From contig JAHZIZ010000244.1 of assembly GCA_022601215.1 (NCBI GenBank), forward strand, positions 1 through 5,754: a stretch of DNA of 5,754 bases. The letters are read 5' to 3'. The position numbers and the translations under genes were made by a program. Below, in pieces: positions 1 through 5,250 of this stretch; the stretch's first letter is position 1, and each line of letters opens with the position of its first letter. The notes beneath the pieces were generated by a model. That model did not search any database. It saw only the letters and a list, made by a program, of their open reading frames with translations, and was not told the origin of the DNA. The DNA is from Bacteroidota bacterium. GTDB lineage: Bacteria; Bacteroidota; Bacteroidia; Flavobacteriales; Flavobacteriaceae.

Positions 1-650
1 AATTTTTCTTTGGTCCTTTTTTCAAGGACCTTTTTATCTTCCTTCTTCTTTGTTTTCAGTAGATCCCGATCCCGTTTCATCTTTTCAATGTTGATTAGCT
101 TTTTTGGAGTCCAATGCTCCTTGGCATAGTCTGTATAATATGTATGGACATTTTCAAGGACACGAATATTTTCATCCAACCATTTTCTTTTGCTGTAATT
201 TGCACAACCTTGCATTTTCCATTCCAAGCGAAGAAATTCACTAGCTTCTTCAAAATATTCCTTGGCAAAGTGGGAGGCATCGGCATCCCTTATTATTTTG
301 TCCAATGGAGTTTGAGGTACAGCACCCATTCTTGTGGCAAGAATACAATCTGAAACCGCAGCTATGGTAGCAGAGTTCTCTCCATGTTTTGTTAGAAAAG
401 AGGTAGCAATTTCAACACTTTTTTCTTCATGTTTTTCGAACCCTTTTATATATCCAACATCGTGAAAAAGAACCGCTAACCAAAGAATGGTCATATCTTC
501 TTCAGAAAGAGACAACCCATCTGTCAATTCTTTCGTACTTTTAAGTACTCGTTGGGTATGCGTGTAATTATGATATAAACAGTTGCTTGGCAACTGATTA
601 GTTAGAAGTTCCTTTACATAGTTTTCACTTTTCAGAATAATGTCTGTCAT
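1..650 (-). CDS. HD-domain phosphohydrolase, N-terminal part of a probable Pycsar-effector-family (HD + DUF5706) protein; 3' end outside window
   Basis: This frame is open for 216 codons from ATG 650-648 to the window edge. An in-frame TGA at 659-657 lies three codons upstream, so this is the first possible ATG. Residues about 1-180 form an HD domain. H27 and H31 lie in a YHNYTHTQRV motif, the HD pair is H63-D64 in LFHDVGY, H74 follows, and the late aspartates are D122/D124 in IRDADASHF. Such domains bind divalent metal and usually hydrolyse phosphoesters, often of nucleotides. From about residue 183 the chain becomes Lys/Glu/Asp-rich and probably helical, like the linker that in flavobacterial homologues joins the HD domain to a two-helix membrane module (DUF5706). 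In Pycsar phage defence, PycTM proteins of the DUF5706 type respond to cyclic UMP or CMP. That half is not in the window, so the effector name rests on resemblance of the N-terminal half, recalled without a search. The gene diverges from the large lipoprotein gene. The HD fold is fairly sure; the defence role is not. Confidence 0.82.
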   Translation of the reverse strand, partial: MTDIILKSENYVKELLTNQLPSNCLYHNYTHTQRVLKSTKELTDGLSLSEEDMTILWLAVLFHDVGYIKGFEKHEEKSVEIATSFLTKHGENSATIAAVSDCILATRMGAVPQTPLDKIIRDADASHFAKEYFEEASEFLRLEWKMQGCANYSKRKWLDENIRVLENVHTYYTDYAKEHWTPKKLINIEKMKRDRDLLKTKKKEDKKVLEKRTKEK

Positions 651-669
651 GCCCAATCAATTAGATTAC

Positions 670-702: not shown

Positions 703-3700
703 ATGATTAAACTTTACAGATTTTGCAGTGTAGCCCTATTTTTAATACTCACAGGATGTGCCACTTATTCGGCTAAGCTTTCTCCTCAACCCAATACAGA
801 AGATAACTCTATTAGAAAGGTAAAAGAGAGTACTTTTTACTTTATAGGAGATGCTGGGTATGACAAAGATGGAACTGCCTCCGAGGCATTAGCGGCATTT
901 GGTAATTATACGGCATCATTAGATACTCAAAATGACCAACTTATTTTTTTAGGAGATAACGTTTATGAAAAAGGGATTCCCAAAGAAAAGGCTGATAACT
1001 ATAATGAAGCTAAGAATAGAATAGATCATCAAATTGCCGTGGCAGAACAATTTAAAGGAAAAACCATTTTTATTCCCGGAAATCATGATTGGTATAGTGG
1101 GTTGAGTGGTGTAAAGCGTCAAGAGAAATTAGTAGAGGCGGCACTTGGTAAAAATACCTTTCTGCCCGAAAATGGCTGCCCAATAGAGAAAGTTGATGTC
1201 ACTGAAAATGTAATAATATTGGCTTTAGATTCTCAATGGTTTATTGCAGATTGGGACCAACATCCTACGATAAATGATAATTGTGAAATAAAAAGTAGGA
1301 ACGACTTTTTCTTGGAGTTAGAAGGAGAATTAAAGAAGAATAATGAGAAGACCATTATCCTTGCTATGCATCACCCAGCATATACATATGGCCCCCATGG
1401 CGGAGGTTTTAATGTAGACAAACATTTGTTTCCATTTAAAACAAAAATACCATTGCCTGTTCTAGGTAGTCTTGTTACCCAATTACGATCTCAAGGCGGA
1501 GTATCACCACAGGATCGCTATAATAAACGTTATGATGAACTCATGGGTAGATTGCTCACCTTGGCGAAAGGGAGTGATAGACTAGTCATCGCATCGGGAC
1601 ATGAGCATACCTTGCAGTATATTGACAAGGATGGAGTAAAGCAGATTGTCTCTGGTTCTGGATCTAAGGAATCACCTGTTAAGCTAGGCGAAGGAGCTCA
1701 ATTTGTTACTGGAAGACAAGGTTTTGTGCAGCTAGATGTTTTCACTGATGGCTCATCGAATGTCACTTATTTTGAAGTGCAGGAAGGAGGTGGTGTTAGC
1801 GCTGTTTTTAATACCAATGTACATGCTGGTCATGAGACTTTTGACACAGCCAATTTACCATCTTCATTTGAGCCTACAATTGAAACGAGTGCTTATAACA
1901 GAGAATCGACCAACAAGGGAAATAGCTATAATTGGTTTTGGGGCGATCATTATCGATATGTTTATGGTACCGATATCAAAGTCCCCGTGATTACCTTGGA
2001 TACATTAATGGGTGGAGTTACGATAGCTAGAAAGGGAGGAGGGCATCAAACACGTTCTTTGCGATTGTTAGATCAGGATGGACGTAATTTTGCCATGCGA
2101 GCTGTTAAGAAAAGTGCAGTTCAGTTCTTACAAAGTGTAGCTTTTAAAGATAACTATGTTGAAAACGATTTTAAAGAGACATTAACCGAAGAAGTCATTT
2201 TAGATTTCTATACGGCAAGTCATCCTTATGGCTCTTTTGTCGTAGGACCTTTGGCAGATGCTATTGGAGTATATCATACCAATCCTAAGTTGATGTATGT
2301 TCCTAAACACAAGGCGCTTGGAAAATATAATGCCGAATTTGGAGACGAGTTATATATCGTTGAAGAACGTCCAGATGATGATTTTTTGGATGTTGCTTCT
2401 TTTGGGAAACCAGAAGCTATTGAGAGTACAGCCGATGTGTTAAAAAAGCTTAGAAAGGATGAGAAATATATGATGGATCATGAAGCCTTTATAAAGGCGC
2501 GCCTTTTTGATATGTTACTGGGCGATTGGGATCGACACCAAGACCAATGGAGGTGGTCTCGATTCGATATCGATGGAAAGAAAGTATACAGACCCATTCC
2601 TAGGGATAGGGATCAGGTTTTTTCAAATTATGATGGAGCACTCCTTGATGTGCTAAAGGTAATCATACCTGCGACCAAGCAGTTTCAGGAGTACGATGGA
2701 GAATTAAAGGACGTAAAATGGATCAATCTTGCAGGTATTCGTATTGACAGAGCATTTACTGAAGGCGCTACGATTGAAGATTGGAAAGCGCAGGCTACTT
2801 ATATCACAGAACATCTAACCGATACTGCGATTGATGATGCTTTTAAACAGTTGCCTAGCGAAGTACAAGATGATACCATGGAAAAGATTAAGACGAAATT
2901 GAAACAGCGTAGAGGTAATCTCTATGATGTCGCTATGCGCTATTACCAGTATTTGTCTAAACTGGTTGTGATAACGGGTACTGACAAGGATGATTATTTT
3001 GAAATTATACGCGAAGATAATCGTACCAAGGTTTCCGTTTCCAGAATTAAAAATGGCGAAAAACAATTGCCTTATAAAACCCGTATTATTCCTTCTGAAG
3101 AGACGAATGAAATTTGGATCTATGGTTTGGATGATGATGATCAGTTTGCGGTGAGTGGGAATGGAAGTAAGCCTATCTTTACAAGAATTATTGGCGGCCA
3201 AAATAATGATAGTTATACTATTGAAAATGGTAATAATGTGAAAGTACACGATCATAAAAGCAAACCCAATACAATCCTGAAAAAAGGAGGAGCTTCGGTG
3301 CGCTTGTCGGATTCATATCAGATTAACAATTATGACTACAGTAAGCATATAAGTAGAATGAACTCCCTTTTACCTTCAATAGGGGCTAACCCTGATGACG
3401 GTTTAAAAATTGGATTGCAAGACACTTATGTGATAAAAGGGTTTAAGACGGACCCTTTTCATCAGAAACACCAGGTAAGGGCAGGTTATTATTTTGCTAC
3501 GGAAGGGTTTGATGTAGCCTATAATGGAGAGTTTGCGGACACTTTTGGACATTGGAATTTGCTGTTGGAAGGTCACTTTACTAGCGAAAATTTCACACGT
3601 AACTTCTTTGGTTTCGGGAATAATTCTGCCGATTTAGACGAAGATCTCGATCTCGATTTTAATCGAATTAAAACAGGGATTCTTAGTGGAAAGATAGGGA

Positions 3701-4398
3701 TTGCGAAAGATGGAGATTACGGCAGTAGGTTGGTGCTTTCTGCTGGTTTTGAGAATATTGAGGTTGAAGCTACTTCAGGTAGATTTACAACCGATTTTTT
3801 TGACGCTTCACCCGAGACTTTTGAAGCTAAAAACTTCGCCTCAGCCGAAATGAATTACAGTTATTCCAGCCATGATAATGGCGCAGCACCTAGTAGAGGA
3901 ATGTTCTTTAAGTTAAACACCGGGATAAGAACAAACCTAGAGGAAACGGATCGCACTTATGGATACATTAATCCAGGGCTTCAGTTTTATAATTCACTGA
4001 GTAAAAATCGAAGACTTGTGCTTAAAACCATGGCCCGCGGACAGTTCAACATTGGAGATCAGTTCGAGTTTTATCAAGCTGCGACACTAGGAGCAGGAGA
4101 TGGTTTACGCGGGTATCGAACTCAGCGCTTTAGTGGTGAAAGCGCGTTGGCCTTGGGTGCCGACCTCCGCTATAGTTTTGCAAAATTTAAAACAGGACTG
4201 TTGCCGTTGCAATTAGGTGTTTTTGGAGGAGCCGACACAGGAAGGGTTTGGTTAGATGGAGAAGATAGCGATGTATGGCACAGTGATTTCGGTGGAGGAC
4301 TCTGGATCAATGCTGTTGATGCGATTTCTGGCCAACTAGGAATCTTTAGTGGTGGAGATGGAATGCGTATATCGTTTGGATTTGGAGTGAGCCTATAG
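703..4398 (+). CDS. Outer-membrane lipoprotein fusing a PAP-like metallophosphoesterase, a kinase-like domain and an Omp85/TamA-type barrel
   Basis: The 1231-residue product starts at the first ATG after an in-frame TAG (691-693). Residues 1-19 are a lipoprotein signal with lipobox LTGC (C19). Residues about 43-350 are a metallophosphoesterase with the purple-acid-phosphatase motif order: GDAG (D50), GDNVY (D85, Y88), GNHDW (N127, H128), MHHP (H223/H224) and GHEH (H300, H302). Residues about 410-750 resemble an atypical kinase: a glycine-rich turn at 445-447 before SLRL, a basic AMRAVKK strand (464-470), GDWDRH (607-612) and IPRDRD (632-637). Residues about 755-860 are a beta-rich, Asp/Gly-rich linker. 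Residues about 900-1231 look like a beta-barrel ending in alternating hydrophobic strands, with the Omp85 signature LRGY at 1135-1138. No POTRA repeats were recognised. The protein should sit in the outer membrane, with its globular part probably periplasmic. Substrate and partners are unknown. Phosphatase and barrel calls are strong; the kinase-like call is inference. Confidence 0.9.
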   Translation: MIKLYRFCSVALFLILTGCATYSAKLSPQPNTEDNSIRKVKESTFYFIGDAGYDKDGTASEALAAFGNYTASLDTQNDQLIFLGDNVYEKGIPKEKADNYNEAKNRIDHQIAVAEQFKGKTIFIPGNHDWYSGLSGVKRQEKLVEAALGKNTFLPENGCPIEKVDVTENVIILALDSQWFIADWDQHPTINDNCEIKSRNDFFLELEGELKKNNEKTIILAMHHPAYTYGPHGGGFNVDKHLFPFKTKIPLPVLGSLVTQLRSQGGVSPQDRYNKRYDELMGRLLTLAKGSDRLVIASGHEHTLQYIDKDGVKQIVSGSGSKESPVKLGEGAQFVTGRQGFVQLDVFTDGSSNVTYFEVQEGGGVSAVFNTNVHAGHETFDTANLPSSFEPTIETSAYNRESTNKGNSYNWFWGDHYRYVYGTDIKVPVITLDTLMGGVTIARKGGGHQTRSLRLLDQDGRNFAMRAVKKSAVQFLQSVAFKDNYVENDFKETLTEEVILDFYTASHPYGSFVVGPLADAIGVYHTNPKLMYVPKHKALGKYNAEFGDELYIVEERPDDDFLDVASFGKPEAIESTADVLKKLRKDEKYMMDHEAFIKARLFDMLLGDWDRHQDQWRWSRFDIDGKKVYRPIPRDRDQVFSNYDGALLDVLKVIIPATKQFQEYDGELKDVKWINLAGIRIDRAFTEGATIEDWKAQATYITEHLTDTAIDDAFKQLPSEVQDDTMEKIKTKLKQRRGNLYDVAMRYYQYLSKLVVITGTDKDDYFEIIREDNRTKVSVSRIKNGEKQLPYKTRIIPSEETNEIWIYGLDDDDQFAVSGNGSKPIFTRIIGGQNNDSYTIENGNNVKVHDHKSKPNTILKKGGASVRLSDSYQINNYDYSKHISRMNSLLPSIGANPDDGLKIGLQDTYVIKGFKTDPFHQKHQVRAGYYFATEGFDVAYNGEFADTFGHWNLLLEGHFTSENFTRNFFGFGNNSADLDEDLDLDFNRIKTGILSGKIGIAKDGDYGSRLVLSAGFENIEVEATSGRFTTDFFDASPETFEAKNFASAEMNYSYSSHDNGAAPSRGMFFKLNTGIRTNLEETDRTYGYINPGLQFYNSLSKNRRLVLKTMARGQFNIGDQFEFYQAATLGAGDGLRGYRTQRFSGESALALGADLRYSFAKFKTGLLPLQLGVFGGADTGRVWLDGEDSDVWHSDFGGGLWINAVDAISGQLGIFSGGDGMRISFGFGVSL
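4393..4398. other. Overlapping convergent stop codons forming the palindrome CTATAG
   Basis: The plus-strand gene ends with TAG at 4396-4398. The minus-strand gene ends with TAG on the complement of 4395-4393. Together these six bases are the self-complementary CTATAG, so the coding regions overlap by exactly their two stop codons. There is no space for an intergenic terminator, and I saw no GC-rich hairpin followed by a T run within about 70 bases on the downstream side of the large gene. Confidence 0.95.
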
Positions 4399-5250
4399 AC
4401 GCAATAGATATAAATTACCGCCTTTTCCTTTGGAGCGTTCGTCTGCAATAAATAATTCGTTTTCATTTTTAAACGAGATGCTTTCCTTTTGAGAAGTATG
4501 CTTTAATTTTATTTTTTCAATACTTCCATGTGCAAAGTTATCATCTATATAATCTTTAATAATCCAAACTTTATTATAGGATAGCAATGCAATTGTGCCG
4601 GTAGCATGATGAACAGCTGCACTTGTAATTTGGCAATCGGATGAATCATCACACGTTTTAATTTCGCCTATGAAAATTGCAACCTGTTCTCCTTCCTTGG
4701 CTGGAAGCTTATATATTTTAGTGGTGCCATCATAATGCTTGGATCGATTTCTTGTAAACAAATAAAAGTACTCATTGAGGTAGATAAAGGATTCTACATC
4801 ATAGCTTTTATCTTTTACCTTGGGGGGAAATGCTAACTGATCATGAAAACTAAATGAAGTTATTTTAGGCGTAATTCGTCGCTTATCTGCGGTATTTGGT
4901 GTCGCTATATGGTAGATAGTGAGATCAGTACGATTACTAATATTGTTACCAAAATCACCTATATAGAGTGAGCCATCAGGATGACTAGCGAGATCTTCCC
5001 AGTCAATATTTGTGGCACCTTTTACTCGGATTGTTTGCACATTCTTCCCTGTATTTACATTGATGTTGTAAAGCTCTGGAGGATTTCTAGAATCATTGAC
5101 GGCCCATATTGATTCTTGTGCGGGATAGTATTCAATTCCACTTACTTCATTTAATTTACTGGGAAGGTCGGTAGCAAGGACTAACTTTCCAAAGTTTTGA
5201 CAACTTACAGAGAAGCTTGATAGTATTAAAAGCGATAGGACTTTATTCAT
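4393..5250 (-). CDS. Predicted envelope lipoprotein with phytase-like beta-propeller repeats, function unknown
   Basis: The 285-residue product begins with a short export signal: K3, a hydrophobic stretch at 4-13, then SVSC with C17 as the likely lipidated cysteine. The lipobox is weak because Ser occupies the -3 position, so ordinary signal-peptidase cleavage is possible. After C17 there is no acidic cluster of the kind that exports Bacteroidota lipoproteins to the surface, which favours the periplasm. The mature part reads as successive beta-propeller blades: NEVSGIEY (34-41) with WAVND (49-53), DWEDLA (83-88) with LYIGDFGNN (95-103), YDVESF (150-155) with YLFTRN (163-168), ITSAAV (208-213) with LLSYNKVW (222-229), and KESISF (255-260) with LFIADE (266-271). 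Repeated acidic residues (E85, D86, D99, E153, E256) recall the pore-facing ligands of phytase-like or SdiA-regulated-type propellers, a similarity recalled rather than searched. C200 and C206 could form a disulfide. The gene is convergent with the large fusion and divergent from cysQ, so it is probably monocistronic. Confidence 0.82.
   Translation of the reverse strand: MNKVLSLLILSSFSVSCQNFGKLVLATDLPSKLNEVSGIEYYPAQESIWAVNDSRNPPELYNINVNTGKNVQTIRVKGATNIDWEDLASHPDGSLYIGDFGNNISNRTDLTIYHIATPNTADKRRITPKITSFSFHDQLAFPPKVKDKSYDVESFIYLNEYFYLFTRNRSKHYDGTTKIYKLPAKEGEQVAIFIGEIKTCDDSSDCQITSAAVHHATGTIALLSYNKVWIIKDYIDDNFAHGSIEKIKLKHTSQKESISFKNENELFIADERSKGKGGNLYLLRL

What the first reader, a model, noticed from the sequence alone, without database searches (positions are those of the whole stretch)
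703..4398. Phosphatase, kinase-like domain and Omp85 barrel on one polypeptide
A PAP-type metallophosphoesterase (motifs at residues 50, 85-88, 127-128, 223-224, 300-302) is followed by a region with kinase-fold landmarks and then by an Omp85-type barrel with LRGY at 1135-1138. Known Omp85 fusions include patatin phospholipases; opposing phosphate chemistries on one barrel would be a different design. It could dephosphorylate or phosphorylate a secreted protein, lipid or sugar as it passes the barrel. The motifs are seen directly; the joint function is inference.
Basis: partly seen in the sequence, partly recalled or inferred. Interest (0 to 1): 0.7.

Follow-up and report, generated by a model that had tools for sequence, protein, structure and literature searches.

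The report
Outer-membrane phosphatase–kinase–barrel fusion protein
One bacterial gene encodes a 1231-residue protein that is predicted to fold into a phosphatase, a kinase-like domain and an outer-membrane barrel, and that likely adds and removes phosphate at the inner face of the outer membrane; a match to it is present in 109 of 149 sampled genera of its family.

The parts
703..759 (+). signal peptide with lipobox, LTGC (predicted lipid-anchored Cys19), no acidic residues at +2 to +4
   Evidence: Cys19 at least 90% conserved in the 30 rows of A1; lipobox-like pattern in 166 of 237 full-size rows
817..1833 (+). purple-acid-phosphatase-type metallophosphoesterase domain, residues 39-377
1981..2955 (+). 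atypical kinase-fold domain, residues 427-751
2035..2043 (+). GGG (445-447), candidate nucleotide-binding loop
   Evidence: 476, 482 and 482 of 489 rows; role inferred
2524..2538 (+). DWDRH (608-612), candidate catalytic loop with D610
   Evidence: D610 in 486 of 489 rows; role inferred
2605..2613 (+). DRD (635-637), candidate metal-binding loop with D637
   Evidence: D637 in 488 of 489 rows; role inferred
2962..3306 (+). all-beta linker domain, residues 754-868, where other Omp85 proteins have POTRA domains
   Evidence: secondary structure; its own fold was not searched alone
3352..4389 (+). 16-strand Omp85-type barrel, residues 884-1229, LRGY at 1135-1138
3..656 (-). divergent HD-domain gene, cut by the contig end; a full-length homologue is an HD-PycTM protein
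   Evidence: PF01966; homologue in L034 carries PycTM PF18967; a homologue in 68 of 79 named loci
4393..5250 (-). convergent lipoprotein-like gene with SdiA-regulated/phytase-like match, 3' end overlaps the ORF by 6 bases
   Evidence: PF06977 24.4 bits, cut-off 21; a homologue in 49 of 79 named loci

Best explanation
The gene encodes one polypeptide that is predicted to sit in the outer membrane by an Omp85-type barrel and to hold, on the periplasmic side, a purple-acid-phosphatase-type phosphatase and an atypical kinase-fold domain, which likely remove and add phosphate on the same outer-membrane substrate. Shown here: the intact ORF, conserved active-site positions, three confident predicted folds, wide distribution, occurrence of the three parts as neighbouring genes, and neighbours of phosphate metabolism. 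Inferred: the periplasmic side (lipobox without export signal, even strand number, PlpD precedent), that both domains are active, that they act on one substrate, and that the substrate is a lipid or glycolipid head group held at the barrel. The phosphate donor is unlikely to be ATP, which is not known to be available in the periplasm (general knowledge); polyphosphate is my guess because polyphosphate kinase is a recurrent gene neighbour in other families of the phylum.
Against: No activity, substrate or location was measured. The kinase match is distant: Foldseek TM-scores 0.40-0.52 of target at rmsd 7-10 A for the first six hits, and no sequence profile links the domain to a kinase family (Pfam, none of 30 members at E up to 0.1; PDB). 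Q615 stands where HipA and PI4K-II have Asn (recalled); the nucleotide-binding Lys (R466 or K470) and its acidic partner cannot be assigned without coordinates. Ppk1 is near the gene in only 1 of 79 named loci, so the polyphosphate link does not extend to the window's own family; Ppx-GppA is near in 3 of 77. By frame size 38 of 113 tabulated genomes have a kinase-plus-barrel frame without phosphatase, so the pairing on one chain is not obligatory. The second kinase-like family rests on a motif that a pattern found in 4 of its 10 loci and a HipA_C hit at E 0.25. Some full-size rows have lost ligand residues.
Confidence: 0.5

Rival explanations
1. The protein modifies outer-membrane or exported proteins: the kinase domain works like the protein kinases CotH and FAM20C, and the phosphatase reverses it.
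Against: PI4K-II, a lipid kinase, ties with CotH; no candidate protein substrate was found; ATP is not known in the periplasm (general knowledge).
Confidence: 0.25
2. The barrel is the working part: an outer-membrane assembly or lipid-transfer factor of TamA type, in which the phosphatase and kinase folds serve as binding or regulatory modules in place of POTRA domains.
Against: Catalytic positions are nearly invariant in both enzyme domains, which binding alone would not require; kinase-only and phosphatase-only genes exist.
Confidence: 0.2
3. A phosphate-scavenging device: the phosphatase frees phosphate from organic esters or polyphosphate in the periplasm, and the kinase fold is a binding module or a pseudokinase.
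For: Neighbours fit phosphate metabolism: Ppk1, HD, SdiA-regulated/phytase-like.
Against: In the 113 tabulated genomes a kinase frame is present in 109 and a phosphatase frame in 78 (derived; separate phosphatase genes may be missed), so the kinase fold is not an accessory; D610 and D637 are nearly invariant. SdiA-regulated/phytase-like is a weak label.
Confidence: 0.2
4. The kinase fold carries another transfer chemistry (for example AMPylation or glutamylation, as recalled for SelO and SidJ), with the phosphoesterase removing the group.
For: Divergent catalytic loop (Q615 for Asn, recalled; R466/K470) and no sequence match to known kinases.
Against: No direct support; the donor problem is the same.
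Confidence: 0.1

Closest known systems
Omp85 'Metallo' subfamily (Heinz and Lithgow 2014, PMC4104836)
   Same: PF00149 domain ahead of an Omp85 barrel; not among the clusters that they list with predicted POTRA
   Different: There PF00149 is called a metalloprotease and the subfamily is said to be conserved at genus level only; here the domain has a predicted purple-acid-phosphatase fold, a kinase-fold domain follows it, and relatives are found across the phylum. Whether the window's protein is in their table was not tested.
PlpD, patatin-Omp85 (PMC11116518, abstract and passages)
   Same: Enzyme domain on an Omp85 barrel; the enzyme domain is in the periplasm; loss of plpD alters membrane lipids
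   Different: Another enzyme, a phospholipase in vitro; here two enzyme domains, a lipobox and no POTRA match
Mammalian purple acid phosphatase (2bq8, 1ute and others)
   Same: Predicted fold and ligand positions; 21-23% identity over 263-274 residues
   Different: Fused to kinase fold and barrel; bacterial outer membrane
CotH, PI4K-II, CtkA and HipA kinases
   Same: Two-lobed atypical kinase fold; conserved D...D in the order of catalytic and metal sites
   Different: 8-18% identity, no detectable sequence profile match; Q615 where others have Asn (recalled); beta domain and barrel follow

Membership tests
Purple acid phosphatase (PAP) | Metal ligands in GD, GDxxY, GNH(D), H, GHxH, including the PAP tyrosine (motif set recalled) | tested here: met
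   D50 230, D85 230, Y88 234, N127 232, H224 237, H300 235, H302 228 of 237
Purple acid phosphatase (PAP) | PAP fold | tested here: met
Purple acid phosphatase (PAP) | Phosphatase activity with a two-metal centre | not testable with these tools
   needs protein
Omp85 superfamily | C-terminal 16-strand barrel with RGY/F-type motif (motif recalled) | tested here: met
Omp85 superfamily | At least one POTRA domain (definition as in the PMC11116518 abstract) | tested here: inconclusive
   No POTRA hit in Pfam at E up to 1; the beta domain 754-868 was not folded or searched alone
Omp85 superfamily | Curated NCBIfam cut-off of NF047779 | tested here: not met
   63.5 bits, cut-off 200; a subfamily model, so this does not exclude the superfamily
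Kinase-fold (protein-kinase-like) superfamily | Two-lobed kinase fold | tested here: met
Kinase-fold (protein-kinase-like) superfamily | Catalytic Asp and metal-binding Asp | tested here: inconclusive
   D610 486 and D637 488 of 489; their roles are assigned by order along the chain, not by coordinates
Kinase-fold (protein-kinase-like) superfamily | Nucleotide-binding Lys and acidic partner | tested here: inconclusive
   R466, K470, D501 and E554 conserved; which of them pair cannot be told
CotH / PI4K-II / HipA families | Sequence profile of the family | tested here: not met
   Pfam: none of 30 members matches a kinase family at E up to 0.1; PDB profile search at E up to 10: no kinase
Omp85 'Metallo' subfamily of Heinz and Lithgow | PF00149 plus Omp85 barrel | tested here: met
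Omp85 'Metallo' subfamily of Heinz and Lithgow | Presence in their sequence table | not tested
   supplement not read

The most novel reading that the evidence does not exclude
A phylum-wide outer-membrane phosphorylation switch: a periplasmic kinase that runs without ATP, drawing phosphate from polyphosphate made by its neighbour Ppk1, writes a phosphate on an outer-membrane substrate at an Omp85 barrel, and the fused purple acid phosphatase erases it; evolution has built the same writer-eraser-barrel set at least twice with different kinase families, and as one, two or three genes.
Probability: 0.18. Interest if true: 0.88.

Novelty: new variant of a known kind. Interest (0 to 1): 0.62.

Why it matters
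If both domains are active, this is a writer and an eraser of phosphate on one outer-membrane protein, in a compartment where a kinase is not expected to have ATP. It would also correct the label 'metalloprotease' for this kind of Omp85 protein, still used in 2024 (PMC11116518 passage), and explain a common gene that sources name, where they name it at all, by words such as metallophosphoesterase, phosphoesterase, surface antigen or BamA/TamA family protein. It turns a general question, whether the periplasmic side of the outer membrane has phosphorylation and what pays for it, into a test on one gene.

Tried and rejected
Chance or artefact of the fused ORF: rejected, 1972 relatives at E up to 0.001; 114 of 116 family ORFs in loci L001-L109 have all four segments (those loci were found with a full-length query, which favours this). 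'Extended part of the phosphatase': rejected by the kinase matches. CysQ downstream as a partner: rejected, a homologue in 2 of 79 named loci. The Riemerella metallophosphoesterase linked to virulence is listed in a review as a T9SS effector (PMC10202324 passages); the original paper is not held, so I draw nothing from it. The phosphate-starvation study PMC8115612 (passages) lists an induced PF00149 gene and a polyphosphate-kinase-like gene of F. johnsoniae; I could not tell whether the present family is among its genes. Biotin_carb_C and Glucodextran_B (below cut-offs) and Elongator (E 0.69) were dismissed. A kinase-domain tree (87 rows chosen from 491) needs 5 changes of the full-size label, at least 4 forced, so the phosphatase was gained or lost several times; four rows have long branches. 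Papers: the listings (20 of 21; 15; 6 of 8; 4; 10 of 100; 0; 2; 12 of 5,123) showed no title on a kinase domain of an Omp85 protein; the library holds open-licence papers only and no preprints, and most listed papers were not opened. The Bacteroidota BAM paper PMC12578637 and the TamL paper PMC12045153 were searched for terms only: 0 mentions of 'metallo', 'phosphoesterase' or 'kinase' in either main text.

Full report
The observation. The ORF 703-4398 encodes 1231 residues without a stop. The window is a whole contig (C422) of a 2.8 Mb draft genome, 80% complete, in which one copy was found. Pfam gives PF00149 at 44-243 (40.9 bits, cut-off 21.5); NCBIfam gives Omp85_fam at 1018-1202, below its cut-off (63.5 of 200). 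Residues 360-890 reach no curated cut-off (relatives).

Relatives. A search of 5.8 billion proteins gave 1972 relatives at E up to 0.001; the 119 best other than the window's own are 55-71% identical over 97-100% of the query. In 149 genomes of the same family, one for each genus and the window's own among them, 109 have a match; among those at least 90% complete, 99 of 124. In 296 genomes drawn from the phylum, 126 have a match at E up to 1e-10; 12 of these have weak matches only, the two that are listed being in the barrel. Several genomes carry two or three full-size copies close together. The unnamed family is Flavobacteriaceae by inference from named relatives.

Active sites. In 237 distinct full-size rows the phosphatase ligands are kept in 228-237 rows. 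In 489 rows of all sizes R466 is kept in 486, K470 in 487, D501 in 486, D610 in 486, Q615 in 480 and D637 in 488. That is the pattern of enzymes rather than of decaying domains. The assignment of D610 as catalytic and D637 as metal-binding follows the order of motifs in atypical kinases (recalled), not coordinates, which I could not read. Which of R466 and K470 meets the nucleotide is open.

Architecture. By frame size, of 113 genomes whose rows I tabulated, 72 have a full-size frame, 38 a kinase-plus-barrel frame without the phosphatase, 6 a phosphatase-only frame and 4 a kinase-only frame; some have two kinds. In L114 the kinase plus beta domain (545 aa), the phosphatase (403 aa) and the barrel (395 aa) are three adjacent genes on one strand. 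In L126 (the same place as L130), L131 and L132, all of one genus, a barrel gene, a lipoprotein-like gene of about 560 aa and a phosphatase gene are adjacent. The middle protein is not hit by the family's kinase profile but has NDTDRRDANT and QDFG, which resemble the D-x5-N and DFG of classical kinases (motif reading; HipA_C hit at E 0.25). Of 10 loci with this second family, 8 have a barrel gene and 3 the phosphatase gene within about 1.5 kb; both motif parts were found in 4 of the 10. If the label holds, two different kinase-like families with the same two partners argue for a functional set.

Neighbourhood. In 79 named loci, 68 have an HD-domain homologue and 49 an SdiA-regulated/phytase-like homologue within the fetched flank of up to 6 kb; a full-length HD homologue carries PycTM (PF18967). 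The CysQ gene of the window has a homologue in only 2 of 79 and serves as a contrast. In 77 genomes outside the window's family and family f2 of the same order that have a listed kinase row, HD-PycTM lies within 10 kb in 48 (17 of 22 families; about 0.5 expected), SdiA-regulated in 20 (11 of 22; 0.3), Ppk1 in 18 (10 of 22; 0.8), Ppx-GppA in 3, and RecA, the control, in 0 (1 within 20 kb). The expected values assume uniform placement. Ppk1 is a direct neighbour in L111 and L121. In the window's own family Ppk1 is not a neighbour (1 of 79 named loci).

Side of the membrane. Cys19 sits in a lipobox (LTGC). A simple lipobox pattern is found in 166 of 237 full-size rows; in those, D or E stands at +2 in 0, +3 in 1, +4 in 0, +5 in 26 and +6 in 3. 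The Bacteroidetes export signal needs an acidic pair close to the cysteine, at +4/+5 in C. canimorsus and mostly +3/+4 in B. fragilis (PMC5080379 passages). Kinase-barrel proteins without the phosphatase mostly lack the pattern (5 of 189 have it), while kinase-only proteins mostly have it (48 of 63). The patatin domain of PlpD is periplasmic (PMC11116518 abstract and passages). I infer that both enzyme domains face the periplasm.

Mechanism. The best-supported picture is a phosphatase and a kinase-fold enzyme, tethered by a lipid at one end and a barrel at the other, acting on a molecule at the periplasmic face of the outer membrane. That both are active is inferred from conservation. That the substrate is a lipid or glycolipid head group is a guess from the PI4K-II match, the barrel and the PlpD precedent. 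The donor problem is real: ATP is not known to be free in the periplasm (general knowledge). The Ppk1 neighbourhood suggests polyphosphate, with low probability.

What is known. Heinz and Lithgow listed an Omp85 subfamily with PF00149 in 2014, called it metalloprotease, and said that it is conserved at genus level (section 10 and passages). A 2024 paper still names a metalloprotease subfamily among those not well characterised (passage). The listings of my paper searches (long results seen only in part) showed no paper on a kinase domain of an Omp85 protein. So this is a new variant of a known kind, with a proposed correction of a label, a newly recognised domain and a conserved phosphate-gene setting.

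Noticed in passing
L126:4571-8823 (also L131, L132): A second family of kinase-like lipoproteins (about 560 aa, NDTDRRDANT ... QDFG) stands between an Omp85 barrel gene and a purple-acid-phosphatase-type gene; 7 of 296 genomes of the phylum have a match to it.
   Followed up: partly
L114:5051-10589: Kinase, phosphatase and barrel as three adjacent genes, followed by an MgtE-type magnesium transporter gene.
   Followed up: partly
window 3-656 and 68 of 79 named loci: HD-PycTM genes, a type annotated as Pycsar effectors, lie within 10 kb of this outer-membrane gene in 48 of 77 genomes of 17 of 22 families, so that label probably does not mean defence here.
   Followed up: partly
L055, L058, L063, L033, L047; G321, G347, G371, G394: Two or three full-size copies of the gene close together, mostly in tandem.
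   Followed up: no
L089:1583-3952 and relatives in 55 named loci: A 790-aa protein whose representative has no Pfam match at E up to 0.001 belongs to a cluster found in 55 of 79 named loci.
   Followed up: no
window 2962-3306: The all-beta domain between kinase and barrel takes the place of POTRA domains and has G/N/D-rich turns by eye; it recurs with the barrel and no kinase in L129.
   Followed up: no
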